From Desulfatibacillum alkenivorans DSM 16219 (GTDB taxonomy: Bacteria; Desulfobacterota; Desulfobacteria; Desulfobacterales; Desulfatibacillaceae), in NCBI RefSeq assembly GCF_900142135.1, contig NZ_FQZU01000009.1, positions 62,001 through 126,000 on the forward strand: a stretch of DNA of 64,000 nt. The letters run 5' to 3'. Numbering within the stretch: position 1 is the stretch's first letter; every line of letters starts with the position of its first letter. Shown here in pieces: positions 13,940-27,639 of this stretch. A program made the translations under genes and the position numbers. The notes below the pieces were generated by a model that worked only from the letters and a program-made list of their open reading frames with translations, was not told the DNA's origin and searched no databases.

Positions 13940-14827
13940 TTAAAGCCCTTCCAAGGTGAGATTGTCCGGAATCGTTTCTTCAAATTGAGTCACATCCTCT
14001 CTGGTGATCAATTTCAGGATGGCGTCCGCAGAGGCGACCCTGGCCAGTCCGGAATTCTCTTCAAAGATTACCCGCCGCCTTTTGGTCATTTCGCTGATGG
14101 CCGGCTCCAAATAGGGTATCAGGCCGTATACCAGCCCGACCAGCCGTTCCTCGTTAAGAAGCGGCGTGGTCAACGGGCCTCCCACTTTGATCGGCGGCGT
14201 GTATAGGACGGGCCCTCCGCTGTTGCCGGGAAAAACAAAGGCGTCGGCGATGATGCCTGTTTCGTCCGACCTTGCCACAATGCCGGACCTGGCTATGGCT
14301 TTGGAATTTCCAAACGACCGAAGCCCCAAAGGATATCCCAAAATCATGATGGAGGCCCCCGCCTGCACGTCCTCCTGATTTAAAAAAAGGCTCTGCGGAA
14401 TGGCGGTGGCCTCAAAAGTATCCTTTACCACGACAAACCGGCAAGCCAGGTCGTCCGGGCCGGAGACAAACCACTTTCCCAACCCTCTCTCTTCCATGAC
14501 TGCATCGCTGATCAGGGTGCTGTCCCCGCCCTGGATGTTAAACCGATAAGCCATGTGCGACCTGATTTCACGCTCTTCATTCAACACAACGTGTTTGGCT
14601 GTGATTAATAAAATATGCTTGTTTTCGGTGATCACCAAAAAACCCGTTCCAGCGGCCATGGGGTCCTTGTCCGGCTTGTCCAACTCGATGGAAACCACGG
14701 TGTCCAGCCATTTTTGGTTGAAAAACGAGGTGCGGTAATTGTCCTGCGCCTGCGCTGAACCTGCTAACATAAAAACTAATCCCAGGATGGACAATAGCGC
14801 TGTCCCTGAGCGACGAAAAATATACAT
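13940..14827 (-). CDS. Exported trypsin-like serine protease
   Basis: The gene encodes 295 residues from ATG 14827 behind GGAG; a longer frame reaches 14866. A signal peptide (residues 1-28, cut near AQAQ) is followed by a chymotrypsin-fold S1 domain. Candidate triad residues are His79 (ITAKHVV), Asp125 or Asp126 (GPDDLA) and Ser203 (GNSGGPV). There is no PDZ domain, unlike DegP/HtrA. It lies between a C39-like peptidase and the HTH/PBP regulator on the same strand. It is a different protein from the second trypsin-like protease at 20.2 kb. Confidence 0.82.
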   Translation of the reverse strand: MYIFRRSGTALLSILGLVFMLAGSAQAQDNYRTSFFNQKWLDTVVSIELDKPDKDPMAAGTGFLVITENKHILLITAKHVVLNEEREIRSHMAYRFNIQGGDSTLISDAVMEERGLGKWFVSGPDDLACRFVVVKDTFEATAIPQSLFLNQEDVQAGASIMILGYPLGLRSFGNSKAIARSGIVARSDETGIIADAFVFPGNSGGPVLYTPPIKVGGPLTTPLLNEERLVGLVYGLIPYLEPAISEMTKRRRVIFEENSGLARVASADAILKLITREDVTQFEETIPDNLTLEGL

Positions 14828-14869
14828 AAATGACTCCAATAAAATGAATACAGGCCGGCGCCGCAAAAG

Positions 14870-15814
14870 CTATCTCCGAAGCCTGCGCCTTCCTTGGTCA
14901 AGCCTGAGAACAACCGCCCCGTCTATCAGGGCGAAGTCCGCGCGATTGGCTGTCTTCAACTCCCCGATCAGCTTGTAAAAGCCGACCGCTGTCATGGAAG
15001 ACGCGTCCTCATCCCCGATGGTTTCATCGCCGGCGCCCGTCATTTTGTCAATATAACCCAGGCTGCGGCCTATGGATATGGCCGGCTTAATCCCTGAAGG
15101 CAAGGCTTCAATTTTTTTTGCCTTCACGTAAATGGGGACAGGCCCGCGAACCGTCCTCCGTAAAGCCGGGTCAAGAATAATGAGAACCTCAGCATTGGGC
15201 GTCCCATCCCGGTCCTCCCCGTATCCAGCCAGGGTGACCCAATGGCCTCCCACCCGGACGTAAGAGGAGGTTGTCCGGTCGAAATTGTACCAGCCGACGT
15301 TCAGCCAGACCGCGCCGGGGCCCGCCAGGCCTTTCTTGATCCAGTCAAGGTCCGGCTGGATAACGCCCGTATGAAAGGCCTTGGGGTGCTTGCGCCAACC
15401 CTGGTATTGGATGGCCGCCCAGTCGAAGCCGCGGTCTTCCAAATATTTTTGCAGGCCAATCATCACGTAGGTCGGGCTGGCGCCTTTACGGGGGTCGACT
15501 TTCATATACCGGTCGCTCCCCAAAAGGGCGGCCAGGCGGGCGTGGGTGATATCCTCCTGCCCGTGGTCTTCCGCTATGGCCGGGTAACCGTTCAGGAAAA
15601 ACCACATGATCCCGTTGGAAACCGCTGCAGCCGCGCAATAGCCCCGCCCATCATAAGGCAGAAACCCCATGCCGTTGTGTTGGCCCAAATCAGGCATGCG
15701 CTCCACCTTGGATGTATAAACCAAGGAGCCCGCCCATGCGCTTGGAAGCAATCCCAGGCAGAGCGCCAGCGCGGCGAGGAGCGTTTGCCAATTTTTACCG
15801 GCTTTTTCTTTCAT
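14870..15814 (-). CDS. Exported C39-like papain-fold peptidase
   Basis: The gene encodes 314 residues from ATG 15814 (a GTG lies 21 bases further out). It has a signal peptide of about 28 residues ending SAWAG. Cys60 (GRGYCAAAA), His191 (VGGHWVTLAGYG) and Asp215 (IILDPAL) occur in the order and spacing of the papain-like C39 peptidase-like fold (Cys-His-Asp). It is therefore probably a periplasmic cysteine peptidase or a related amidase. It is the first gene of the minus-strand run and lies divergent from cooC. Confidence 0.65.
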   Translation of the reverse strand: MKEKAGKNWQTLLAALALCLGLLPSAWAGSLVYTSKVERMPDLGQHNGMGFLPYDGRGYCAAAAVSNGIMWFFLNGYPAIAEDHGQEDITHARLAALLGSDRYMKVDPRKGASPTYVMIGLQKYLEDRGFDWAAIQYQGWRKHPKAFHTGVIQPDLDWIKKGLAGPGAVWLNVGWYNFDRTTSSYVRVGGHWVTLAGYGEDRDGTPNAEVLIILDPALRRTVRGPVPIYVKAKKIEALPSGIKPAISIGRSLGYIDKMTGAGDETIGDEDASSMTAVGFYKLIGELKTANRADFALIDGAVVLRLDQGRRRLRR

Positions 15815-15991
15815 GACAGGGTATATCCATAGCACACAATTACCCGCAGCGGCAATATGTCTAAGCGATTGAAGGGCCTTGCCGCCTCCCCTGGTTTTCT
15901 TTTTTTCAGTTTGCCATTCCGTGAAATGGGTCCTATATTAATCCGTAGCAATATTTGTGAATTCCAACTGGATGCCAAGAAAGGACATGCC

Positions 15992-16747
15992 ATGAAAATA
16001 GCTGTTAGCGGTAAAGGCGGCGTGGGAAAAACAACCTTCTCCGCGCTCCTCATAAGAACCCTTGACGAACAAGGGAAAAAAGTCCTGGCCATCGATGCGG
16101 ACCCGGACGCCAACCTGGCCTCCGCCGTGGGCGTACCCGGCGCGGAAGACATCGTCCCCATCTCAGATATGAAAGAGCTGATTTACGAAAGAACCGAGGC
16201 GAAACCCGGCTCCGTGGGCGGCTTTTTTAAGCTCAACCCCAGGGTGGACGACTTGCCCGAAGCCCTCTCCGCCAAGCTGAACAACATCAAGCTCATGCGC
16301 CTGGGCGGCGTGAAAAAAGGGGGCGGCGGCTGCATCTGTCCGGAAAGCACCATGCTGAAAGCCCTGATCAACCATGTGATCCTGGCCAGGGATGAAGTGG
16401 TTATCCTGGACATGGAAGCCGGCATCGAGCATCTTGGCCGGGCCACGGCCATGGCGGTGGATAAATTGATCGTTGTTGTGGAGCCGGGAAGGCGCAGCAT
16501 CGAGACGGCCAGGCATATCCGCCAGCTTGCTTCGGAAATCAAGCTCTCCCGCATTGCCGTGGTGGGCAATAAAATCCGCGGGGAAAAGGACAAGGAATTC
16601 CTGCAAAAGAACTTGCCGGACTTTGATTTCCTGGGATTCATCCCCTACGACGACGCCTTGATCGAGGCGGACCTGGACGGCAAGCCGCCTTTTGAAAAGG
16701 CCGATGACGCCAAAGCCGTCGTCAAAGGCATGCTGGACAAACTATAA
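15992..16747 (+). CDS. cooC: CooC-like nickel-insertion ATPase
   Basis: The gene encodes 251 residues from ATG 15992 behind AAGGA. A deviant Walker A motif (GKGGVGKTT, residues 7-15) and the switch DADPDAN place it in the MinD/CooC class. A CxC motif (GGGGCICPES, about residues 111-120) matches the metal-binding cysteines of CooC at the dimer interface. CooC loads nickel into carbon monoxide dehydrogenase, here probably the CODH/acetyl-CoA synthase of the Wood-Ljungdahl pathway, which is not in the window. Its last 13 codons and terminator are duplicated twice downstream. Confidence 0.88.
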   Translation: MKIAVSGKGGVGKTTFSALLIRTLDEQGKKVLAIDADPDANLASAVGVPGAEDIVPISDMKELIYERTEAKPGSVGGFFKLNPRVDDLPEALSAKLNNIKLMRLGGVKKGGGGCICPESTMLKALINHVILARDEVVILDMEAGIEHLGRATAMAVDKLIVVVEPGRRSIETARHIRQLASEIKLSRIAVVGNKIRGEKDKEFLQKNLPDFDFLGFIPYDDALIEADLDGKPPFEKADDAKAVVKGMLDKL

Positions 16748-16877
16748 AACCCTCCGGCCGGGGCCAACGCGCCAAGCCTCAACGCCCCGGCCGTTTTTTC
16801 TCCTTGAACATTCCCGCCCATCCAAATTATCATACAAAAACAGCGGCCCAAGGCGTAAAAGTACGTCCCCAAAAACT
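16705..16877. repeat. Ancestral copy (copy 1) of the cooC-tail repeat
   Basis: The segment from the last 13 cooC codons through the terminator and about 110 bases beyond corresponds, with scattered substitutions, to the inner part of the two 233-bp repeats at 18434 and 21283. The rest of the spacer to 17023 shows no gene. It contains an ACGTCCCC motif, the reverse of the GGGGACGT repeat core. Confidence 0.85.
16755..16800 (+). terminator. Terminator of cooC
   Basis: A perfect 10-bp stem, CGGCCGGGGC (16755-16764) with GCCCCGGCCG (16784-16793), is followed by six T. It begins 8 bases after the cooC stop. Two further copies of this terminator are carried in the downstream direct repeats. Confidence 0.92.
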
Positions 16878-17023
16878 TGCTGAGACTTATCTATAAAGTC
16901 AAGGACCTTTCTTAAAGTGCTCCCGGAAGACCATTCCACGACAATCAAACATGCCTGCGCTAAATTGCCCCTCGGATTCAGGAGCCCTTGTTCAAAAACA
17001 CAAAAACTGGCAACTCCGAAAAA

Positions 17024-17830
17024 CTAAATCGCAGCGCAAAATAATTGTTTGGTAGCCTCATCGGCAGGAAAGAGCAGCTCCACTCGTAATTCCTGAGTGG
17101 TTAGATCGAGCGGTGTGCCAAGGGTTGTTATGGTAGTGAAAAAACTCGCCCTAACAGAGTCCTTCTCAAATGTCAGAATCATGATTGGCATATCGGCGTC
17201 AATATCTGCATCCACTATAGAATCATGTATATTAAGTTTGGACATGTCTTTGTAGAGATCAATCAATTCTTCGTTTTGGGTCGAAACCGCCTCTCCCAGC
17301 AGGCGATCCATCATGAACTGTTCAACCATAGGCCAGTGTATGATGTAGTTTTTCAAGCCGTCCTCTGCAAAAACCATCCGGTAAACATTGTCATACTTTT
17401 TGAAGACGTTTTCTCCTACCAGGGTTTTCACGACCTGCTGATAGCCTGAGTTTTTCATCAAAATCTTGTAAGCTGCATTGATCACGATGGCTGGGTAAGG
17501 TTCGTGCTTTTGCAAGATCCTCTCCAGAGCGCTCCTAACCATGGACATCTTTTCCCCTTCAAAGGGCTCTTCTTTGAACTGGGAAGCAAAGCCGGCGGCC
17601 ATTAAGAGCGCGTTTCTTTGTCGTAAGGGCAATTTGAGGCAGCCGGCAATTTTAAGAATCAATTCCCGGCTGGGTTTCGATCGGCCCGTTTCCACGAAAC
17701 TCAAATGCTTTGAAGAAATACCGGCATCCAAGGCCAAATCCATTTGGCTGACCTTATTGTGCTTTCTCCAAAGCCGAAGCATGTCCCCCACGGATTCCGT
17801 CTTTTTATGGGCGCCCACAAAATTCAGCAT
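17024..17830 (-). CDS. XRE-family regulator with MmyB-like ligand domain
   Basis: The gene encodes 268 residues from ATG 17830, chosen for the GGGAGG site 8 bases upstream; a longer frame starts at 17860. An N-terminal XRE helix-turn-helix (VSQMDLALDAGISSKHLSFVE) is followed by a ~180-residue domain of the MmyB-like type, thought to bind a fatty acid or other small ligand. Base composition is more AT-rich than in neighbours, suggesting acquisition. It is divergent from a small membrane-protein gene, with an inverted repeat between them. Confidence 0.85.
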   Translation of the reverse strand: MLNFVGAHKKTESVGDMLRLWRKHNKVSQMDLALDAGISSKHLSFVETGRSKPSRELILKIAGCLKLPLRQRNALLMAAGFASQFKEEPFEGEKMSMVRSALERILQKHEPYPAIVINAAYKILMKNSGYQQVVKTLVGENVFKKYDNVYRMVFAEDGLKNYIIHWPMVEQFMMDRLLGEAVSTQNEELIDLYKDMSKLNIHDSIVDADIDADMPIMILTFEKDSVRASFFTTITTLGTPLDLTTQELRVELLFPADEATKQLFCAAI

Positions 17831-17844
17831 AAATTTTACCTCCC

Positions 17845-17865
17845 AGGTAATGGACATCATTACCT
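17845..17865. promoter_or_regulatory. Candidate XRE operator in divergent promoter region
   Basis: AGGTAATG-5-CATTACCT is an exact 8+8 inverted repeat. It is placed 15 bases upstream of the regulator start and about 58 bases upstream of the membrane-protein start. The position fits an autoregulatory operator controlling both directions. Confidence 0.65.
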
Positions 17866-17922
17866 TTAGGGGTTACCATTCACAAGAACTCAGGGCAACC
17901 TTATTTTGAAAGGAGAAAGACA

Positions 17923-18264
17923 ATGACGGTGTTTCGTATTTTATTGGGCATTTTTACAATCGCAATCCTGCTCTTTACGGGACTTGTGATTCAAAACCAT
18001 GGATGGAATCTTTTCCCTGTCTTCTTTGGAGACATTGCGGCCATGACCTGGGCTGGACAGTTCAATTTTGACTTTATGTGTTTCCTTACGCTTTCCGGGT
18101 TATGGCTCGCATGGCGACACAGGTTCTCTATGGTGGGTATCATATTGGGCATTATGGGCTTTTTCGGGGGCATCATGTTTCTCGCTCCATATCTTCTTAT
18201 TATGAGTTTTAAGTCGAATGGAGACATGAATGAATTACTATTAGGAGATTACAGGGGGGACTAA
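17923..18264 (+). CDS. Small membrane protein
   Basis: This 113-residue protein is preceded by AAAGGAG. Three hydrophobic segments are visible (about residues 5-25, 46-63 and 70-95), with a hydrophilic C-terminal tail. The family is not recognised. It is divergently transcribed from the XRE/MmyB-like regulator and is probably its target. Composition is AT-rich like the regulator's, so both genes look like one acquired unit between repeat copies 1 and 2. Confidence 0.65.
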   Translation: MTVFRILLGIFTIAILLFTGLVIQNHGWNLFPVFFGDIAAMTWAGQFNFDFMCFLTLSGLWLAWRHRFSMVGIILGIMGFFGGIMFLAPYLLIMSFKSNGDMNELLLGDYRGD

Positions 18265-18305
18265 GCTGTTATTGTTTTTGGAGACATCTTATCGTTTTAT
18301 TCTTT

Positions 18306-18450
18306 ATTCTTGGGGACGTCCCTGCATATTCTTGGGGACGTCCCTGCTAACTCACTAACTTTTTGTAATTCTTGGGGACGTCTTTGAATAATAATTCTTG
18401 GGGACGTAATTCTTGGGGACGTCTTTGAATAATTAATTCTTGGGGACGTC
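18306..18450. repeat. Array of six GGGGACGTC repeats
   Basis: ATTCTTGGGGACGTC-type units occur at 18306, 18328, 18368, 18394, 18409 and 18436, all in one orientation with irregular spacing of about 15-40 bases. Some are followed by TTTGAATAATT. No spacers of constant length exist, so this is not a CRISPR. It resembles dispersed REP-like repeats. The wider 674-base gap (18265-18938) holds this array, repeat copy 2 and about 270 bases with nothing recognised. Confidence 0.88.
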
Positions 18451-18481
18451 TTTGAATAATTGACTAACTGTTCTCAAGCCT

Positions 18482-18524
18482 TGACGCCAAAGCCGTCGTC
18501 AAAGGCATGCTGGAAAAACTATAA
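18482..18524 (+). pseudogene. cooC 3'-end fragment
   Basis: Thirteen codons (AKAVVKGMLEKL and flanking) with a stop codon match the end of cooC at 16705-16747, with a few substitutions. There is no start or upstream body. It is carried inside the 233-bp repeat and is not expected to be translated. Confidence 0.85.
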
Positions 18525-18533
18525 CACCCTCCG

Positions 18534-18580
18534 GCCGGGGCCAACGCGCCAAGCCTCATCGCCCCGGCCGATTTTTTCTC
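18534..18580 (+). terminator. Duplicated terminator in repeat copy 2
   Basis: The CGGCCGGGGC / GCCCCGGCCG stem followed by ATTTTTT is the same hairpin as after cooC. It lies between the small membrane protein and the lipoprotein gene, so it would insulate the two modules from each other. Confidence 0.85.
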
Positions 18581-18938
18581 CTTGAACATACCCGCCCATC
18601 CCCATTATCATACATAAACAGCGGACCGTGGCATAGAAGGGCGCCCCAAAAAGTTTTTGTCGGGTCACGCGGACCTGCGCCATGAAATTTGAAGCGATTC
18701 AGATCGCACACTGTTAGGTACACGCAGATCGCGCCAGGGCGGTTTAAGGCGTTTTGGAAGGACTAACGCCTGGGAAACAAGGAAATGATTCAGCGGTCTT
18801 TTTAAGGGACATCCGTGTTTACGCTTATTTGTCACATAGTATAGATTTTAGTTGTTATATTTTACTCTATGATATAAGAGTTATTTATCTGTCATTTCTC
18901 CCTCGATTCTAATAAATCACAGCACAAGGAGCAGACCC

Positions 18939-20240
18939 ATGAATCCGCTCAGGGCCATTCTTATGTTAGCCTTCGCACTGATGGTGGCCAGCTGCGCCTC
19001 CGTCACCGTCCAGGACGCCGCCCCTAATGACGGCCGTGGTGACAACTTGAAGGACGGATACCTTTATTATCCACGCCGTCCGTATCTGCACGTGAAAAAA
19101 GAGTTTCCCCTCGAAGGAGGAGAAGGATACATCCAGGCGAAAAGAACCAAGGACGGCATTCTGTTCCGCAGTCCATGGGATGAAAGACTCCAAGCCCTGC
19201 CTCTTGGAGCCATTCTCACCAGGAACAAGACCGGGGACCTGACGTCCGGCGAAAAGAAGGATGACGAGGGCGGCGCCACCGCCAGCACGGAAAATTCCTC
19301 GGAGGACCGCCAGACGTTGAGCAAGGCGACGGCCACGGCCGGATACAATCCGGCCGTGAAGGAGATCGAACCCTTGGGCGACTTGTTCGACATCGTCTAT
19401 CTGCCGGACGTGGACAACCCCCGCGTCTTGAACGCCTCTGCCCCGCTGGGCACGGCTGACGTCAGTCTGGCCTATGGACCAGGCAACACCTTCAATACAT
19501 TCCAGACCACGGCGGACAACCGCGAGATAGGATACGTGGTGAAGGACTTGGTGGACACGACCATCAAAGTCGCCAAAAAGGTTGCGGAGATGCAGACGGG
19601 CCTGGCGACCCTTACGAGCGGCCAGATGGACACTCTGGCGTCGGATTATAAGATCGGGGACACCATGCTCCTGAAATATCGATATGTGGCCTATGCGACG
19701 CCCAACCTGACCCCCCTCGTGAAGGAGCGTGAATTCGCGGATGCCAGGGCGAGGTCGATTTTTCATGAGGAGGACCCCTATCTCAGAAGGCCGGAGTATC
19801 CGTATACCCGCTTTGCCTTCAAGATCCGCACGGAGTTTAGCCTGATCAAGGAAGACTTAGGCGCGCCCGGGCAAAATCCGAAGCCGGAAGGCGCTGACGT
19901 GGAAGCGGAGAAATCAAGGCAGATCGCGATCAATCTGATTTTCGACAAGAAAACGCTGGAACTCAAAGACGCCGGCGGAAAGGTGGAGTACAAGCTGACT
20001 TTCCTACCCACCGACCCCAAGACGATCACTGCGGATTCCGAGGTGCGGGTGACATGGCTTCACGATCCCTCCTTGCAAAACCCGAAAAACCTCTTGCCCC
20101 GCGTGCTTCAACAGACCATCGCGTTGCTGGAAGGCACGCCAGACGATCAACAGGAACCCATTCTGAACTGGCTCAAAGCCGCCAAGAAGCCCGAGAACGT
20201 GATAAACCTACTGCCAAATGCGGGCACGAAAGGATCGTGA
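18939..20240 (+). CDS. Lipoprotein of unknown function
   Basis: This 433-residue protein is preceded by AAGGAG. The N-terminus is a lipoprotein signal with lipobox VASC (Cys about residue 19), so it is probably anchored to the outer or inner membrane. The mature part is hydrophilic, with a low-complexity charged stretch (about residues 100-130) and otherwise mixed alpha/beta character. I do not recognise the family. It is followed after 3 bases by a trypsin-like protease, so the two are almost certainly co-translated. Both lie between identical 233-bp repeats. It may be a substrate, anchor or partner of the protease; this is inference. Confidence 0.75.
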   Translation: MNPLRAILMLAFALMVASCASVTVQDAAPNDGRGDNLKDGYLYYPRRPYLHVKKEFPLEGGEGYIQAKRTKDGILFRSPWDERLQALPLGAILTRNKTGDLTSGEKKDDEGGATASTENSSEDRQTLSKATATAGYNPAVKEIEPLGDLFDIVYLPDVDNPRVLNASAPLGTADVSLAYGPGNTFNTFQTTADNREIGYVVKDLVDTTIKVAKKVAEMQTGLATLTSGQMDTLASDYKIGDTMLLKYRYVAYATPNLTPLVKEREFADARARSIFHEEDPYLRRPEYPYTRFAFKIRTEFSLIKEDLGAPGQNPKPEGADVEAEKSRQIAINLIFDKKTLELKDAGGKVEYKLTFLPTDPKTITADSEVRVTWLHDPSLQNPKNLLPRVLQQTIALLEGTPDDQQEPILNWLKAAKKPENVINLLPNAGTKGS

Positions 20241-20243
20241 GCC

Positions 20244-21194
20244 ATGGCATTCACCGACTTGACCGTGTTCGAACAGGCCGGGATTCTGCGGCGCTTCATC
20301 CCAGGCCTCGAAAAACGCCTGAAGGAAGATCACCCAGAGCTGGTGTCGCTGACCCTCGGCAACCGGGAGCGGGGCGGCAAGGTCATGGAGGACGAGCTGA
20401 CACTCAAGGCCGTGGTGCGGGAAAAGCTGGCCCAGCCCGTCAATCCCTTGCCGAGTTCCATCACGCTACGCACGCGGGCCAGGGCCGCCACCCAAGAAGA
20501 GTCGGCGGCGGCCATTGAAATACCCATCGACGTGGTCAGCTTTCCCACTTCCGAGCTTACCTCTGCAGCCAATGTCTTTGCTGTAAATGCAACCGGCTGC
20601 CTTGCCGGACGCATTCTCTGGGCAAATGGAGGGCGGGCCTGGCTCACGGTGTCCCATCTTCTCAAATTCCCTGGCGGGGCGACCGTGAACGCCCTCACCA
20701 CTCGGGACGGCGTGCGCCTGCCGCGGGCAAAAGGCGCCCTGTGGCTCCAAGACCCCCTCCAGCCCGGCTACCCCATCGACGCAACCGCCGTGGTCGAAGA
20801 AGAGGACATGCAACGGTATGCGGCGTGGACCGCGGCCAAGATTGATTCCAAGATATGGACCCAACAGCTAAACGGCTTGAGGGGGTTCTATTTTGTCGAC
20901 CAGAAAGGCGAGTTCCACGCGCTCAGGTATCATACGACGTGCCGGGCGGGGATCGTGCAATTCACGGGAGGAGGTTACTACCCCCTGGTGCACCTTTTTC
21001 AGAGCGACTACGCTCCATACGGCGGCGACTCCGGCGGGCCCGTATGGCTCGAATACCAGCAGAATCAGTATCTTGTCGGCATTCAGTCGGGCGTGACCGA
21101 GGGCAACTTCATAGTCATACCCATTGACTGCGTTTCGCGCGCCTTTCGAAATGCCGGTGTCATGAGCGGCATATGGTTCAAGCCGCTTAGCTAG
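20244..21194 (+). CDS. Trypsin-like serine protease with novel N-terminal region
   Basis: This is a 316-residue protein. The C-terminal two-thirds has trypsin-like active-site signatures: His138 (LTVSHLL), probable Asp179 (YPIDATAVV) and Ser263 (GGDSGGPVW). Residues 1-100 form a charged region of unknown fold (EQAGILRRFIPGLEKRL...). No signal peptide is visible, unlike the other S1 protease in this window, so it may act in the cytoplasm or leave by another route. It starts 3 bases after the lipoprotein stop. The pair has the look of an accessory two-gene system. Confidence 0.78.
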   Translation: MAFTDLTVFEQAGILRRFIPGLEKRLKEDHPELVSLTLGNRERGGKVMEDELTLKAVVREKLAQPVNPLPSSITLRTRARAATQEESAAAIEIPIDVVSFPTSELTSAANVFAVNATGCLAGRILWANGGRAWLTVSHLLKFPGGATVNALTTRDGVRLPRAKGALWLQDPLQPGYPIDATAVVEEEDMQRYAAWTAAKIDSKIWTQQLNGLRGFYFVDQKGEFHALRYHTTCRAGIVQFTGGGYYPLVHLFQSDYAPYGGDSGGPVWLEYQQNQYLVGIQSGVTEGNFIVIPIDCVSRAFRNAGVMSGIWFKPLS

Positions 21195-21234
21195 CGCCCA
21201 CCCATCAAGTGCTGCTTTTCCAATAATTCTTGTA

Positions 21235-21299
21235 ATTCTTGGGGACGTCTTTGTAATTCTTGGGGACGTCTTTGAATAATTGTAATTCTTGGGGACGTC
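21235..21299. repeat. Array of three GGGGACGTC repeats
   Basis: Units start at 21235, 21256 and 21285 in the same orientation and form as those at 18.3 kb. A partial unit (AATTCTTG) sits just before. It leads straight into repeat copy 3. The whole gap 21195-21923 (729 bases) contains this array, copy 3, an imperfect inverted repeat, and no convincing gene. Confidence 0.87.
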
Positions 21300-21515
21300 T
21301 TTGAATAATTGACTAACTGTTCTCAAGCCTTGACGCCAAAGCCGTCGTCAAAGGCATGCTGGAAAAACTATAACACCCTCCGGCCGGGGCCAACGCGCCA
21401 AGCCTCATCGCCCCGGCCGATTTTTTCTCCTTGAACATACCCGCCCATCCCCATTATCATACATAAACAGCGGACCGTGGCATAGAAGGGCGCCCCAAAA
21501 AGTTTTTGTCGGGTC
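21283..21515. repeat. 233-bp direct repeat, copy 3 (with cooC tail fragment)
   Basis: This is identical to 18434-18666 over the full 233 bases. It carries the same GGGGACGTC unit, cooC-tail remnant (about 21331-21372) and terminator (about 21380-21427). It closes the lipoprotein-protease module on its 3' side. The sequence diverges immediately after GTCGGGTC. Confidence 0.93.
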
Positions 21516-21613
21516 GCTCCGCATGGGCTTTTAGGATTCTATATCGTTCCCGTCAGAACGGACGTCTTTGGATACTAAAAGACCCATGGCGGCTTCGCGT
21601 GACTCGACCCACA
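21511..21613. repeat. Imperfect inverted repeat at the end of the module
   Basis: The left arm starting GGGTCGCTCCGCATGGGCTT is matched, with gaps, by the reverse complement of the right arm ending CCCATGGCGG...GACTCGACCC. The arms share CATGGG-CTTTTAG. A further GTCGGGTCGCGCGAAGC element follows at about 21643, with a diverged relative at about 18659. This looks like a degenerate REP- or MITE-type element. Confidence 0.5.
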
Positions 21614-21923
21614 AGATGCCTGTGATTTCAATCTGTTGTAGGTCGGGTCGCGCGAAGCTGTGCATTGAAATTTGAATCGACAGGATGTCATTTTACCGTA
21701 TCTGAATTCAAAATTTTGGGAGTCCAGGCGCAGCGACCCGACATTCTGGATACACGGCAATGGATTTCGGGGGACATGACTTTATCTCAGCAAAAGCGTC
21801 AAATCTTGCAAAGTATGTTCTATGAGATAAACATCACGTCCCCACAAAATCAAGGCAGAAATTGATAGACTGATTGCATCAACCTATAACCAAACAAAAT
21901 TAATCAAATAAAAGGGAATCGTC

Positions 21924-22637
21924 ATGAAAGAATACACCATTCATCCGTTGGTTGTGGGCGTAAACGAAACCGACCAGGGCGTCATGACCTATCTGCGGGA
22001 TTACGGAAAACGCATTTACCTGCCCATCTATGTCTTTGTCATCAAGGGCGGAGACAAAAATATCCTTGTGGATACCGGGCTGGAGCAGTTTGTGGTGGCC
22101 GACGACCTGGGCGAAAAGCTGGGCATGGACATCCTGGAGTTCGAGGACGCCCTGGCGACCCAGGGCCTGGAGCCTAAAGACATCGACGTCATCATTCACA
22201 CTCACCTGCACAACGATCATTGCGAAAACGACTACAAATGCGAAAACGCCAAGGTCTACATGCAGCAGGCGGAGTTTGACTTTTTCCAGGACCCGCACCC
22301 CATCGACCATCGGTATTATCCGGACGTGCTGGACGACGTGGACGTGGAAATCATCAGCGGCGACCAGGAGTTGTTTGACGGGATTTCCGTGATTTTCTCC
22401 CCCGGCCACAGCGTGGGAGGCCAGAGCGTTTGCGTGAACACCAAACAGGGAAAAGCCGTAATCACCGGATTTTGCGCCAACGAGAAAAACTTTCCCGAGG
22501 CCGGACCGGCGGTGGCGCCCGGAGTGCATATTGACGTACGTCAGGCTTATGACAGCGCGCAAAAAATCAAAACCGATGCGGACATCCTCATCCCCCTCCA
22601 CGCCATGTGGGTGGGGCGGGAATCCGTCATCGGCTGA
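21924..22637 (+). CDS. Metallo-beta-lactamase-fold hydrolase (AHL lactonase-like)
   Basis: This 237-residue protein is preceded by AAAAGGGA. The zinc motif HTHLHNDHC (H94xH96xD98H99), a later metal histidine (SPGHSVGG) and a C-terminal histidine (IPLHAMW) place it in the MBL-fold superfamily, near the N-acyl homoserine lactonase group. The true substrate may be another lactone or thioester. It precedes the MttB-family gene by 146 bases, in which one copy of a dispersed repeat lies (about 22670-22760). Confidence 0.82.
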   Translation: MKEYTIHPLVVGVNETDQGVMTYLRDYGKRIYLPIYVFVIKGGDKNILVDTGLEQFVVADDLGEKLGMDILEFEDALATQGLEPKDIDVIIHTHLHNDHCENDYKCENAKVYMQQAEFDFFQDPHPIDHRYYPDVLDDVDVEIISGDQELFDGISVIFSPGHSVGGQSVCVNTKQGKAVITGFCANEKNFPEAGPAVAPGVHIDVRQAYDSAQKIKTDADILIPLHAMWVGRESVIG

Positions 22638-22669
22638 AACGCCGCGTTGCCATGGAAAAATGGAGATCC

Positions 22670-22760
22670 TGAAGAAAACAGCCTCCGGCGGGTCGCTTCA
22701 TGGAAAAGCGGGGCAAAATCTTTTCTAAGGCGCTACGCGCAACGATCGCAGGGCGCCGAT
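22670..22760. repeat. Dispersed spacer repeat, copy A
   Basis: The segment has the order AACAGCCTCCGGCGG, an A/T-rich AAAATCTTTT core, then AAGGCGCTACGCGCAACG. The same order occurs at 24712-24785 and, inverted, at 25832-25915. The core is the most degenerate of the three. Confidence 0.6.
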
Positions 22761-22783
22761 ATTCAAAAGAATAGGAGATTTCA

Positions 22784-24229
22784 ATGAGCAGGCAGGCTTT
22801 TGAAGCCTTTCAAAGGGGAATAACGCTGGAAAAGGAGGCTCAATTCGAAAGGGCCAAGGCCCTTTACGAGGACATCCTGCTTAACGCCGGCGAGGACGCG
22901 GTTACGGAAAAAGTTCATTGCCGGATGGAGGACATCGACGACCTGATTGCCGAAAAGGCAATTTACCGGCGCATTGATGAAAACGCAAAGCTGGTGCTGA
23001 CGGAAATCGGCGTAAACATCGCCGGCAGCCAGTCCCTTTTGGAACTTCTGATGGAGGCGGACGCCGTGAATTTCGACAATGAAACGGCGCTGTTCATCCC
23101 CTTGAAACAAGAGTACATCGATCATTGCCTGGAACAGACGCCCCGAAAGATGGCGGGAGATCCGGGGAAAAACACTTTCGGCATTGGCGCGACTTCGCCC
23201 TTTTTAAAGCGGGCCGGCGAAGATGAACTGCGCCAAGCCAATCGGGAGGAGTACAAAAAGATCGCTTCTGCGGTGGGGGAGCAGCAAGACGTTGTGGGGA
23301 TTTTTAGCCTGCCGGCGGCTTGCGACATGAGCATTTCCCTGTTCGAGGTCGCTCAATTGATGGAAAAAAATTTTCCCGGGCTCAAAATGATTACCACCAA
23401 TACGATGAGCGATGATGAAGCGGCTTTTTTAAAAGGCAAGGATCAATGGCTCGACGGCACGAGCCTGATGACCTCCCTGGGCCCCATGGATAACATGGTG
23501 GAGCCCTTTCTGCGCAGCGCCCGCATAGGCAACAATCTTTTGCTCATCGATCAAAGCATTGCAGGCGTCTCCGCCCCGGGCAGCCCGGAGGCTTTCCTGA
23601 CCCAGGTCCATGCCCAGGTTATTTTCATGATGGTCATCGCCCAGACCGTTAATCCGGGTGTATCTTGCGTACATTGCGGCATTCCCAGCGTCGTCGGGGC
23701 GGACGGCGCCCTGGCGTACAGCTCCCCCCAGCAAACATTCATCAATGCGGCCATGGCGAGGGTCAACTCCTGGATCGCCCATTTTCCTTCCGCCCAGACC
23801 GGAGGCAGCACCAGCTTGAGCGAGGTGACTCCCCAGGCGCTTTTGGACTCGGAATTGAGCCGAAACACGCTGCGCAAATATGGGGTGCACATCGTGCGGC
23901 ATGCCATGGGCGCCTTAGGCAGCCTTAACTTTTTCAGCCTGGATAAATTTTTGGAGGACTGCGGCCGCGAAAGACATTCCCGCAGGATTTTTGAAGCAAT
24001 GCCAAAGGATATAGGCGTAATCCCCACCTACTTTCCCGGCGACGATCAGGCTCTTGCAGGAATCCGGGAGGCCGCGGAAAAGGGCAACCCTAAAAACGCC
24101 GACCACACATTGAAAAATGCGGGTTCGTTCATTCATTGGATGGAACGCATCCGTGAGGCCGCCAAAAAAAAACAATACTATCCGGAACTCAACGATATTG
24201 TCTTGGAAACGATCAATTCAGGCGGGTGA
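22784..24229 (+). CDS. MttB-family (non-pyrrolysine) methyltransferase
   Basis: The 481-residue protein starts with AGGAG upstream. It resembles trimethylamine methyltransferase family proteins along its length (TIM-barrel region with TNTMSDDEAAFLKGKDQW, and a C-terminal segment with DHTLKNAGSFIHWMERIREA). No in-frame UAG interrupts it, so it belongs to the large pyrrolysine-free branch. One characterised member of that branch, MtgB, demethylates glycine betaine onto a corrinoid protein. No corrinoid protein is encoded nearby. Its stop overlaps the start region of a response-regulator gene. Confidence 0.82.
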   Translation: MSRQAFEAFQRGITLEKEAQFERAKALYEDILLNAGEDAVTEKVHCRMEDIDDLIAEKAIYRRIDENAKLVLTEIGVNIAGSQSLLELLMEADAVNFDNETALFIPLKQEYIDHCLEQTPRKMAGDPGKNTFGIGATSPFLKRAGEDELRQANREEYKKIASAVGEQQDVVGIFSLPAACDMSISLFEVAQLMEKNFPGLKMITTNTMSDDEAAFLKGKDQWLDGTSLMTSLGPMDNMVEPFLRSARIGNNLLLIDQSIAGVSAPGSPEAFLTQVHAQVIFMMVIAQTVNPGVSCVHCGIPSVVGADGALAYSSPQQTFINAAMARVNSWIAHFPSAQTGGSTSLSEVTPQALLDSELSRNTLRKYGVHIVRHAMGALGSLNFFSLDKFLEDCGRERHSRRIFEAMPKDIGVIPTYFPGDDQALAGIREAAEKGNPKNADHTLKNAGSFIHWMERIREAAKKKQYYPELNDIVLETINSGG

Positions 24230-24237
24230 GGATGCTT

Positions 24238-24702
24238 ATGGACGGCGCGCATTTTCTGCTGGTGGATGACGAAAAAGTCTTTGTGGAGGCATTGGCCCAG
24301 CGCCTGGAGGCGCGGGGCTTTAAGGTGGATTGCGCGTTTTCCGGGGCGGAGGCTCTGACGCAACTGGAAAAGGACCGGTCCATCGACATTGTTGTTCTGG
24401 ACAGGCGAATGCCGGACCTTGACGGCGTCCAGGCCATGAAGGAAATCAAAAAGGCCCATCCCCTTGTGGAGGTCATCATTCTTACTGGGCATGCGGAAAT
24501 CGATTCCGCCGTGGAGGCCGTAAAGCACGGCGCTTTCGACTACCTGGAAAAGCCCTGCGATATTGACCAGTTGCTTTTAAAGGCCCGACAGGCTTTTGCA
24601 AGAAAGACCGAACGCGAGGAGAAAATCCGCGAGGTGAGGATGAAGCCCTACCTGTCCCCCAAAGAGCGGGACGCCCTCATAGCCAAAATCCTGGAAAATT
24701 GA
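24238..24702 (+). CDS. Stand-alone response regulator receiver protein
   Basis: The gene encodes 154 residues from ATG 24238 behind GAGG; GTG 24226 and ATG 24232 are alternatives, the GTG overlapping the upstream stop. It has the CheY-like receiver signature: acidic pair in LLVDDEK, phospho-acceptor Asp55 (VVLDRRMPDLDG), Thr/Lys switch (ILTGHAE, EKPCD). The short C-terminal extension (KTEREEKIREVRMKPYLSPKERDALIAKI) is helical without a DNA-binding domain. No kinase is adjacent. The tight coupling to the MttB-family gene is notable. Confidence 0.88.
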   Translation: MDGAHFLLVDDEKVFVEALAQRLEARGFKVDCAFSGAEALTQLEKDRSIDIVVLDRRMPDLDGVQAMKEIKKAHPLVEVIILTGHAEIDSAVEAVKHGAFDYLEKPCDIDQLLLKARQAFARKTEREEKIREVRMKPYLSPKERDALIAKILEN

Positions 24703-24711
24703 ACTCCTGCA

Positions 24712-24785
24712 AAAACAGCCTCCGGCGGCGAACTTTTTGCAAAAAGTTTGATCAAAAACTTTTCAATGGCCCTTCGCGCAACAGA
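24712..24785. repeat. Dispersed spacer repeat, copy B
   Basis: AACAGCCTCCGGCGGC, then AACTTTTTGCAAAAAGTTTG and ATCAAAAACTTTTC, then GGCCCTTCGCGCAACA. It contains the self-complementary CTTTTTGCAAAAAG. It sits just after the response regulator and is related to copies A and C. Confidence 0.75.
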
Positions 24786-24840
24786 TTCCAATAGCTTCAG
24801 TCCGTCTCACTCTCTTCTTTTAGTAATGGAAAAACCTCTC

Positions 24841-25698
24841 TCAATCCCCTGCATCCCGGTCGCGGATAATCAATAAAACAGAACTCAAAATTAAGGAGCT
24901 GCCCACATAGGCCGCGACCCCGAACGACTCGCCCCACCAGAAAAAAGCGACCACGGCAGCCACCACCGGCTCAATGGTGGCGGTGATGGCGGCCCGGGAC
25001 GCTTCCAGATGCTTCAGGCCGATATAGTACAGGAAATAAGCGGCGTAGGTGCACAAGGCGGCGATGCAGAACAAAGCCGTCCAGGCAGTCGGGCTTTTAT
25101 GGGAAAACTCCACCCAGGGAAAAAGGGTTATGGCGCCCATGGGCAGCATGTACAAAAAAAGGTTGGGGGCGGTATACTTGTCTGAAAAGTATTTTCCTAT
25201 GATGTAATAAAGCGAATAGCAAAACCCCGCGGTCAGGCCGAAAAACACCCCGGACCAGGTAACCTGGATGCCGCCTCCTCCTCCGCCCGCAACGCAGGCG
25301 ACTCCCATAAGCGTGAATGCCAAGGCCAGGATTTTGAGGCGGGTGAACCGCTCCCTGAAGGTGAACCGGGCGATCACACAGACCCATGCAGGCGCCGTAT
25401 AAAGCAAGACTGCGGCCATGGCGGCGCCCCCTGCGCGAATGGCCACCTGGTAGGATCCGTAAAAGGCCGTCACGCCGATAATTGCGAATAGCGCAGTCAT
25501 GGGAAAATCCCGCACGGACATGCGCACGGTGCGCGTTGCTGCTGCATGTGCGGCGAAAAAGCCCCACGTCAGCGCCGCACGCCAGAAGGCGATCTCCATG
25601 GGCTGTAGGCCTTCCGACAAAGCCAGGCGGGAAAACGGCCCCAACATGCCCCAAAGCATAGCCGCGGCCGCTATGTATAGATATCCTTTTACTCGCAA
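24841..25698 (-). CDS. EamA-family (DMT) transporter
   Basis: This 285-residue protein starts at TTG, with AAGG upstream. Ten hydrophobic segments in two homologous halves fit the drug/metabolite transporter EamA fold. Family signs include AAAAMLWGMLGPFSRLAL at the N-terminus and the LEASRAAITATIEPVVAAV segment in the second half. The substrate (amino acid, metabolite or drug export) cannot be read from sequence. It is a single-gene unit on the minus strand, flanked by repeat copies B and C. Confidence 0.85.
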   Translation of the reverse strand: MRVKGYLYIAAAAMLWGMLGPFSRLALSEGLQPMEIAFWRAALTWGFFAAHAAATRTVRMSVRDFPMTALFAIIGVTAFYGSYQVAIRAGGAAMAAVLLYTAPAWVCVIARFTFRERFTRLKILALAFTLMGVACVAGGGGGGIQVTWSGVFFGLTAGFCYSLYYIIGKYFSDKYTAPNLFLYMLPMGAITLFPWVEFSHKSPTAWTALFCIAALCTYAAYFLYYIGLKHLEASRAAITATIEPVVAAVVAFFWWGESFGVAAYVGSSLILSSVLLIIRDRDAGD

Positions 25699-25831
25699 TT
25701 GCTGCGCCTTTTATATTGTGTCGTCCCGGAATTTTTGGGGAGGCTGCGGCGGTCGAACATGACAAACAGGGCGCAGCAAGCAGCACTCCTAAGTGAGCCG
25801 GGACATCAGGGAGCGAATTAACATCCCCCTG

Positions 25832-25915
25832 GTTTTGCGCGAAGCGCCATTTAAAAAGTTTTGATCAAACTTTTTCAAAAGTATGCCGCCGGAGGCATGC
25901 AGTTCGTCATTTTAT
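25832..25915. repeat. Dispersed spacer repeat, copy C (inverted)
   Basis: Read on the minus strand it has CCTCCGGCGGCATAC, CTTTTGAAAAAGTTTG, ATCAAAACTTTTT, then GGCGCTTCGCGCAAAA, matching copies A and B. It lies in the gap between RNase J and the EamA gene. A second CCGCCGGAGGC follows at about 25925. Confidence 0.75.
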
Positions 25916-25956
25916 GCAGTTTACCGCCGGAGGCGCGCGGTTCCGCAGTTGGTTTC

Positions 25957-27639
25957 TTACACTTCCAGCACCAGGGGCACGATGACGGGCCTGCGGCGAA
26001 TAACGTAATTGAAAAAACGGCGCAAAGCCTGCTGGGTGGCGGCTTCTATGAGGGGGATTCTATCCGGCCCGGACAAGTCCAACTGCTCGACGGCGTCCAT
26101 GATGACGCATTGGGCGTCCTGGAGCAAATGGCCTTTTTCGTCCTCAAACACAAACCCGCGGGAAAGAAGCTCCGGCCCGTAGATGACAACCCCTGTGTCG
26201 AAATCCAAAACCATGGTGGCCACCACCATGCCGTGTTCGGACAAGGCCCGGCGGTCTTTCAAAACCTTGCGGCCCACGTCGCCGATGCCTTTGCCGTCCA
26301 CAAAGGTGCGGCCCGTATCCACGGATTCGCCGATCCAGCCCACTTCGTCCAAAAAGTTGACCACGTTTCCGTTTTGAGCCAGCAAAATCCGATTTTTTGG
26401 GATGCCCACTTTTTCCGCCAGCCGGGCGTGGTGCAACAGGTGCCGATATTCCCCGTGGACGGGCATGAAATATCTTGGCCGGGTCAGGTGCATCATGAGC
26501 TTGAGTTCTTCCCGGAAGGCGTGGCCCGAAACATGGATGGCCGAAATTTTTTCGTAAATGACCTCCGCGCCCCGGCGGTATAGATTGTTGATAATGCCGG
26601 TGATGGCCTTTTCGTTGCCCGGGATGAACTTGGAGGACAGGATGACCGTGTCGCCGTCCTTAATTTTAATCTGCTTGTGGGCGCCGGCCGCAACCCTGGC
26701 CAGGGCGCTCATGGGCTCCCCCTGGCTGCCGGTGGTGACGAGCAAAACCTCGTTATCTTCGTAATCCTTGACTTCGGAAACGTCAATCTGCATGCCCGGC
26801 GGAACGTTGATATACCCCAATTCCTGGGCGATGCGCATGCTCACTTCGATGCTGCGGCCGTTGAAGACGATCTTCTTGCCGGTTTTTGCGGCGATGTTCA
26901 CAATCTGAGCCAGCCGGGGCACGTTGGAGGCGAACAGGGCCACGATAACCCGGCCCGAGCTGTCCCTCACCGCTTTTTCCAGGGTGGCGCCGATTTCGCT
27001 TTCCGAAAGGGTGTATCCTTCCTTTTCCGCATTGGTGGAATCGGACAAAAGGGCCAAAACCCCTTCTTCGCCCAATTGGGCCAGACGGCTCACGTCCGTG
27101 GCTTCATCGTCCAATTGGCCGTGGGTGATCTTAAAATCCCCGGTGTGGACGATCAATCCCGCAGGCGTTCTGATGGCCAGGCTGACGCCGTCCACCACGC
27201 TGTGGGAGGCCCTGACGAATTCAATATGAAACGGCCCGATGGAGAAGCTCTCCCGCGGCTTGATCTCGTGCAAATCCACCCGGGAAAGAAGATCCTTCTC
27301 CTCCAGCTTGTGGCTGACCAGCGCTATGGTGAAAGGCGTGGCGTAAACCGGGGCGGGGACGTCTTTAAGCAAAAAGGGCAGGGCGCCAATATGGTCTTCG
27401 TGGCAGTGCGTCAGGACAATGCCGGCCACCCGTTCCTTGTTTTCCCTCAGGTACTCATAGTCCGGGATGACAATGTCCACGCCCAGCATATAGTCCTCGG
27501 GAAACATGAGGCCGGAGTCCACCACAAGGATGACGCCGTCATACTCAAAGACTGTCATGTTCAGCCCGATTTCCCCCAGGCCGCCCAAAGGGATGATTTG
27601 CAGGGGGGTGGAGTGTTCAGGAGTATCCTGGGGCGTCAT
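25957..27639 (-). CDS. rnj: Ribonuclease J
   Basis: This 560-residue protein matches the usual RNase J length. It has the metallo-beta-lactamase motif HCHEDH (residues 78-83), a further metal ligand region (GDFKIT), the beta-CASP motif region (DSTNAEKEGYT, GSQGEPMSALARVA) and the HVSGHA motif. The C-terminal ~100 residues are the RNase J-specific domain. RNase J has both endonuclease and 5'-3' exonuclease activity and matures or degrades RNA. It is a single-gene unit; the start ATG has only a weak ribosome binding site. Confidence 0.93.
   Translation of the reverse strand: MTPQDTPEHSTPLQIIPLGGLGEIGLNMTVFEYDGVILVVDSGLMFPEDYMLGVDIVIPDYEYLRENKERVAGIVLTHCHEDHIGALPFLLKDVPAPVYATPFTIALVSHKLEEKDLLSRVDLHEIKPRESFSIGPFHIEFVRASHSVVDGVSLAIRTPAGLIVHTGDFKITHGQLDDEATDVSRLAQLGEEGVLALLSDSTNAEKEGYTLSESEIGATLEKAVRDSSGRVIVALFASNVPRLAQIVNIAAKTGKKIVFNGRSIEVSMRIAQELGYINVPPGMQIDVSEVKDYEDNEVLLVTTGSQGEPMSALARVAAGAHKQIKIKDGDTVILSSKFIPGNEKAITGIINNLYRRGAEVIYEKISAIHVSGHAFREELKLMMHLTRPRYFMPVHGEYRHLLHHARLAEKVGIPKNRILLAQNGNVVNFLDEVGWIGESVDTGRTFVDGKGIGDVGRKVLKDRRALSEHGMVVATMVLDFDTGVVIYGPELLSRGFVFEDEKGHLLQDAQCVIMDAVEQLDLSGPDRIPLIEAATQQALRRFFNYVIRRRPVIVPLVLEV

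What the first reader, a model, noticed from the sequence alone, without database searches (positions are those of the whole stretch)
16705..21515. Module array separated by copies of the cooC 3' end and its terminator
Seen directly: the end of cooC plus terminator and downstream spacer occurs three times in the same orientation (16705, 18482, 21331). Between copies 1 and 2 sits an XRE regulator with a divergent small membrane protein; between copies 2 and 3 sits a lipoprotein-protease pair. Copies 2 and 3 are identical over 233 bases, while copy 1 is diverged. Each module is thus closed by the same terminal element, as in a cassette array. Duplicate gene tails at an insertion site are also known from elements that integrate at the 3' end of a gene. 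No integrase or transposase is visible, so the mechanism is open. This is my main candidate for an undescribed accessory system.
Basis: partly seen in the sequence, partly recalled or inferred. Interest (0 to 1): 0.8.

Follow-up and report, generated by a model that had tools for sequence, protein, structure and literature searches.

The report
Gene-tail-carrying transposon punctuates gene modules
In a sulfate-reducing bacterium, a small mobile DNA element has picked up the last 13 codons and the terminator of a metabolic gene, and its copies now sit between unrelated two-gene modules, which suggests that a little-studied transposase family helps bacteria string accessory genes together.

Summary
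In detail: the cooC 3' end plus terminator occurs three times in one orientation (16705, 18482, 21331), and copies 2 and 3 are identical over 233 bases. It is more than a local duplication: four further copies lie elsewhere in the same genome. Copies 2 and 3 begin with a ~30-bp sequence, TTGGGGACGTCTTTGAATAATTGACTAACT, whose pattern has 47 matches in the genome and 0 in the control; the other four have complete, shortened or degenerate forms of it. Inverted pairs of it flank two full-length IS200-like (TIRYT/RAYT-type) transposase genes. The unit is best read as a non-autonomous TIRYT-type element that captured the cooC tail. Two of its four outside copies bound an Rhs-tip module in the same orientation; a third follows an Rhs gene. 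Both window modules are two-gene units with relatives in other genomes. A sister species keeps cooC and a terminator but has neither modules nor repeats there. One genome of the same order has 11 same-orientation TIRYT elements in ~33 kb with toxin-antitoxin-type genes between them. How modules enter (IS26-like targeted insertion, or homologous recombination between copies) is inferred. Verdict: real; new variant of a known kind.

The parts
15992..16747 (+). native cooC gene (CooC-type ATPase), source of the captured tail
   Evidence: 93% identical protein in sister species
16705..16799 (+). copy 1: native cooC last 13 codons, stop codon and intrinsic terminator
   Evidence: fold z -3.67
16860..16876 (-). 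possible right-end remnant (GTACGTCCCCAAAAAC) downstream of native cooC
   Evidence: alignment (inference, short)
17024..17860 (-). module 1: XRE/MmyB-type regulator
   Evidence: MLTR_LBD, HTH_3; relatives in 4 of 193 other genomes at E<=1e-30
17923..18264 (+). module 1: small membrane-like protein
   Evidence: found beside the XRE gene in 3 of the 4 relatives' loci
18307..18480 (+). nested array of 6 complete or partial TIRYT-type left ends
18434..18666 (+). copy 2: non-autonomous element (left end, cooC tail, terminator, spacer, degenerate right end)
18532..18577 (+). terminator hairpin and T-tract in copy 2
   Evidence: z -4.20
18939..20240 (+). module 2: lipoprotein-like protein
   Evidence: one distant relative in 394 other genomes of the phylum sample
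20244..21194 (+). module 2: trypsin-like (GDSGGP) protein
   Evidence: no relative in 193 other genomes of the order; a GDSGSP ORF follows the lipoprotein relative in L265
21236..21329 (+). nested array of 3 left ends
21283..21515 (+). copy 3: identical to copy 2 over 233 bases
21381..21426 (+). terminator in copy 3 (identical to copy 2)

Best explanation
The repeated unit is a non-autonomous element of a TIRYT-type (TIR-associated, IS200-like Y1 tyrosine) transposase. Its left end is TTGGGGACGTCTTTGAATAATTGACTAACT; its body is the last 13 codons, stop and terminator of cooC plus ~70 nt; its right end, where intact (C76, C51), is the same end inverted. SHOWN: the copies, their ends, the transposase genes with matching inverted ends, copies at non-cooC loci, and absence from the sister species. 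INFERRED: one capture event created the unit at cooC (the captured segment starts at nearly the same base in copies 2 and 3, C76a, C76b and C51); transposases encoded in trans moved it; modules were then joined to it so that same-orientation copies end up between modules. For the last step I favour insertion of a circle carrying one element copy plus a module beside an existing copy, either by transposase targeting or by RecA recombination in the shared sequence, like IS26 translocatable-unit arrays. This gives identical direct repeats around a module, as in copies 2 and 3. The terminator carried by each copy would insulate each module from the next.
For: Seven tail-bearing copies in the genome, four outside the window. 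End pattern: 47 sites in the own genome, 0 with the reversed control pattern. Transposase genes with both flanks readable and inverted ends: C40 and C4; the C93 gene has two end copies downstream, its other side is cut by the contig end. Of 30 relatives' loci examined, 25 (one of them this genome's C40) had both flanks and 21 of 25 showed inverted ends at similar distances, 19 of them with GGGACG. C76a and C51 have the inverted right end. Same-orientation copies bracket a module at C76 too. Sister species: homologous cooC and terminator, no repeats, other genes. A same-order genome (G057) has 11 TIRYT copies, all one orientation, with 0.5-3.9 kb between copies; 6 of 10 proteins scanned from the gaps match toxin or antitoxin-type families.
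Against: The right end of copies 2 and 3 is degenerate, so they may no longer be mobile. The left ends of C76b (shortened), C51 (degenerate) and C44 (another subtype, ~107 bp upstream of the tail match) are not full matches. No empty site from the same species, no circle, no reads. The tail unit was found in no other genome (0 of 39 relatives). Sharing of the cooC neighbourhood by copies 1-3 could come from local recombination alone. G057 was chosen because one search showed clustered hits; the other 18 regions fetched (4 of G057, 14 of five other genomes) held single transposase copies, no array. Same orientation can also follow from a strand bias of insertion. Transposition was not demonstrated. 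TIRYT consensus GGGGWSAS is matched at 6 of 8 positions only (GGGGACGT).
Confidence: 0.72

Rival explanations
1. Plain homologous recombination or tandem duplication: a fragment of cooC was duplicated with neighbouring DNA, and later recombination between copies inserted modules; the TTCTTGGGG repeats are bystanders.
For: Copies 2 and 3 are identical over 233 nt, as a recent recombination would leave; copies 1-3 lie within 5 kb; local direct duplications are common near these ends in this genome.
Against: Copies at C76, C51 and C44 are far from cooC; the captured segment starts at nearly the same base, just inside the left end, in copies 2, 3, C76a, C76b and C51.
Confidence: 0.2
2. An integrase-type element that integrates at the 3' end of cooC and regenerates the gene tail, leaving att-like duplications.
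For: Gene-tail duplication at an insertion boundary; the stretch from the cooC terminator to about 25.9 kb has no syntenic counterpart in the sister species.
Against: No integrase-like ORF among the five ORFs between the copies or the two ORFs just downstream that were scanned; copies 2 and 3 do not restore cooC but follow a transposase end; the same unit sits beside Rhs genes and at other non-cooC loci.
Confidence: 0.04
3. Assembly artefact in a 102-contig draft.
For: 20 of the 47 end sites lie within 1.2 kb of a contig end, so these repeats do break the assembly.
Against: The window array lies inside a 156-kb contig, and each copy has distinct flanks.
Confidence: 0.04

Closest known systems
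TIRYT / TIRtron (Di Nocera 2013, PMC3733652; subclass 2.1 of Quentin 2018, PMC6006769; passages read)
   Same: IS200-like Y1 transposase of ~336-346 aa, long inverted ends with a GGGG motif at similar distances from the gene, dispersed and clustered end copies in the genome.
   Different: Ends read GGGGACGT rather than GGGGWSAS at two positions; here a non-autonomous derivative carries a host gene tail and terminator and lies between modules. In the passages I read neither paper mentions such cargo.
REPIN (Bertels and Rainey 2011, PMC3116915; passages read)
   Same: Short non-autonomous element with inverted ends, thought to be moved in trans by a RAYT.
   Different: REPINs are hairpin doublets with a short spacer; this unit is ~230 bp, holds coding sequence and a terminator, and its ends lack a conserved GTAG.
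IS26 translocatable-unit arrays (PMC7885326 and others; search listing only)
   Same: Modules interspersed with directly oriented element copies.
   Different: IS26 is an IS6-family element with a DDE transposase (recalled); here the transposase is Y1 and the punctuating unit is non-autonomous.
Integron cassette array (recalled)
   Same: Modules each closed by a recurrent element in one orientation.
   Different: Here the recurrent unit is a transposon-like element with a gene tail. Integrase and attC sites were not searched for systematically.

Membership tests
TIRYT/TIRtron-derived non-autonomous element | Y1/HUH IS200-like transposase with matching ends in the genome | tested here: met
   PF01797 over cut-off at C40, C4, C93; C40 protein PF01797 36.1 bits over cut-off 23; NCBIfam REP_Tyr_transpos 71.5 bits, below its cut-off of 80; inverted ends at C40 and C4
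TIRYT/TIRtron-derived non-autonomous element | inverted terminal repeats flank related transposases in other genomes | tested here: met
   21 of 25 loci with both flanks, of 30 examined; the 25 include the own C40 copy
TIRYT/TIRtron-derived non-autonomous element | published end motif GGGGWSAS | tested here: not met
   end reads GGGGACGT, 6 of 8 positions (motif from PMC3733652; ends)
TIRYT/TIRtron-derived non-autonomous element | both ends present on the unit | tested here: inconclusive
   both on C76a and, with a degenerate left end, on C51; window copies have the left end and a degenerate right end
TIRYT/TIRtron-derived non-autonomous element | transposition of the unit | not testable with these tools
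   no reads, strains or assays
REPIN | GTAG-tagged palindromic REP doublet | tested here: not met
   GTAG precedes the left end at C40 only, among the flanks printed
integron cassette array | IntI integrase and attC sites | not tested
   no integrase or attC search was run; ORFs between the copies have no integrase family
IS26-type translocatable unit | IS6-family DDE transposase | tested here: not met
   the transposase linked to these ends is Y1_Tnp (PF01797)
IS26-type translocatable unit | modules alternate with single directly oriented element copies | tested here: met
   window, C76, G057 (11 copies, one orientation)

The most novel reading that the evidence does not exclude
TIRYT elements are array builders: their transposase, or recombination at their copies, adds circles carrying one element copy plus a module beside an existing copy, giving same-orientation arrays of accessory modules (toxin-antitoxin pairs, Rhs tips, regulator and protease pairs). 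Nicking at the left end with aberrant re-replication would account for the nested partial left ends, the local duplications, and the capture of a host gene tail with its terminator as a ready-made insulator.
Probability: 0.35. Interest if true: 0.78.

Novelty: new variant of a known kind. Interest (0 to 1): 0.6.

Why it matters
TIRYT-type transposases are common (matches at E<=1e-20 in 141 of 242 genomes of this order) yet the word TIRYT is in only 2 papers of the library, and what they do for the host is open. If their copies can join and bound accessory modules, they would be a non-integron, non-DDE route to cassette-like arrays outside clinical bacteria, with toxin-antitoxin and Rhs modules as cargo. 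A mobile unit that carries a host gene's terminator would also be an insulator that travels with its module.

Tried and rejected
Rfam scan of 14000-24000: no family. PADLOC on four module proteins: weak matches only, not used. Solved structures for the protease: 3 matches with E 0.8 or worse. Plasmid records and viral contigs for the protease: no match, and 16 pattern hits with no relative. AlphaFold of both module-2 proteins without alignment: mean pLDDT 33.7 and 32.9, unusable, so no fold search. A general large target duplication: a perfect 250-bp direct repeat flanks the C4 transposase, but none directly abutting was seen at C40 or in the 25 loci, where one locus (L212) had a distant 86-bp repeat; rejected as a rule. 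Compensatory change in the terminator: folds compared only, no pair count made. Old tandem duplication as sole cause and integrase at cooC: see rivals.

Full report
1. What is there. The 233-nt unit is at 18434-18666 and 21283-21515 (identical), and its cooC-tail part at 16705 in native cooC. The captured part is the last 13 codons and stop of cooC (DAKAVVKGMLDKL; E for D in copies 2 and 3), then the terminator and ~70 nt of spacer (reading). In front of copies 2 and 3 are 6 and 3 head-to-tail, mostly truncated copies of TTCTTGGGGACGTCTTTGAATAATTGACTAACT.

2. Genome-wide. The window is contig C90:62001-126000 of a 6.47-Mb, 102-contig genome. The unit gives 34 matches: 7 include the tail (3 in the window, C76 twice, C51, C44), the other 27 are matches to the end sequence only. 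A degenerate end pattern gives 47 sites with up to 2 mismatches and 0 for the reversed control. A related search in 40 genomes (own included) found a match in one other genome, G001, to the end only.

3. The ends belong to a transposase. Three full-length IS200-like genes (C40, C4, C93; one search also lists a partial one at C73) are 79-100% alike. C40 and C4 are flanked by inverted copies of the end; at C93 one side is cut by the contig end. In relatives (best 30 loci, one per genome, of 141 genomes with a match out of 242), 5 loci lacked a flank, and 21 of the remaining 25 showed inverted ends 55-68 nt before and 27-61 nt after the matched region, 19 with GGGACG; L198, L203, L208 and L222 showed none. 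This is the TIRYT/TIRtron layout of PMC3733652 and PMC6006769 (passages read). The published motif GGGGWSAS is matched at 6 of 8 positions.

4. Source of the tail. In the sister species (locus L073, contig of a Desulfatibacillum sp. MAG; its match coordinates equal those of G001:C104) the cooC protein is 93% identical, the DNA aligns from 15204 to 16764 and then stops, and a terminator folds at the same place. So the native tail is ancestral and the other copies are derived. Copies 2 and 3 are closest to native; C76 and C51 form a more diverged group; C44 is the most diverged.

5. Outside copies. C76a has a left end and an inverted right end, then an ORF whose middle part reads as an Rhs core end and tip (no Pfam match), then a 143-aa ORF, then C76b in the same orientation. 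C51: a 1036-aa Rhs ORF (PF05593), a 176-aa ORF, then the unit with a degenerate left end and inverted right end at the contig end. At C76 and C74 the Rhs-tip sequence starts within a few bases of an inverted end at the same Rhs position, whereas C42 reads through it. In copies 2, 3, C76a and C51 the nearest upstream ORF runs in the terminator's direction; not examined for C76b and C44.

6. The modules. The XRE gene has relatives at E<=1e-30 in 4 of 193 other genomes of the order; the small protein lies beside it in 3 of the 4 loci (63-72% identity); GGGGACG was absent from 3 of the 4 loci and present once in the fourth, L193. The protease has no match in 193 other genomes. The lipoprotein has one distant match in 394 others (L265), where the next ORF has GDSGSP but no significant similarity to the window protease; no GGGGACG there. 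The sister species has none of the modules at these thresholds. Window 16764 to 25.96 kb has no syntenic counterpart there (one 71% stretch at 24.4 kb and short repeats only); the sister's cooC-downstream genes match C90:46.9-52.0 kb here. So the site is a synteny break, not a clean empty site.

7. A second array. In G057 (same order) 11 copies of one TIRYT element, 98-99% alike for the full-length ones, lie in ~33 kb, all in one orientation, two of them split by other insertions. Nine gaps of 513-3924 bp hold other genes; of 10 proteins scanned, 6 match TumE (2), HepT, nucleotidyltransferase and PIN (2), one matches Schlafen AlbA_2, and three have no match or only matches below the cut-off. 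Three of the 8 left ends printed carry a partial repeat of the left end. I fetched this region because one search showed clustered hits; the other 18 of the 20 regions fetched had a single copy each.

8. Mechanism. Shown: the anatomy. Inferred: one capture, movement in trans, then joining of modules. Identical copies around module 2 fit the last step by recombination or by targeted insertion of a circle. Nested partial left ends and local duplications beside ends (C4, C7, C34, C42, C43, C76, C93) point to faulty end processing. I put 0.72 on the element and 0.35 on array building as an activity of this family.

Noticed in passing
L155 5780-6029 and 7171-7420 (contig C4): A TIRYT transposase element inside an Rhs gene is flanked by a perfect 250-bp direct repeat that abuts both element ends, an unusually long duplication.
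   Followed up: partly
window 18307-18480 and 21236-21329; L160, L162, L172, L229; G057 array: Nested, variably truncated copies of the left end stacked in front of a full one; in the window they repeat a few flanking bases (TAA).
   Followed up: partly
L021 4577-5490 (C76) and L170 2760-3033 (C74): Rhs-tip sequences start within a few bases of an inverted transposase end, at the same Rhs position in both.
   Followed up: partly
L266-L267 (G057:C1:3855000-3893000): Eleven same-orientation TIRYT copies with toxin-antitoxin-type genes between them.
   Followed up: partly
window 18659-18697 and 21642-21680: A second interspersed repeat (GTCGGGTCRCGCG..., 82% over 39 nt) directly follows copy 2 and lies ~130 bp after copy 3.
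   Followed up: no
window 16764-25960: Stretch without syntenic counterpart in the sister species, starting at the cooC terminator; includes the metallo-beta-lactamase-fold and MTTB genes.
   Followed up: partly
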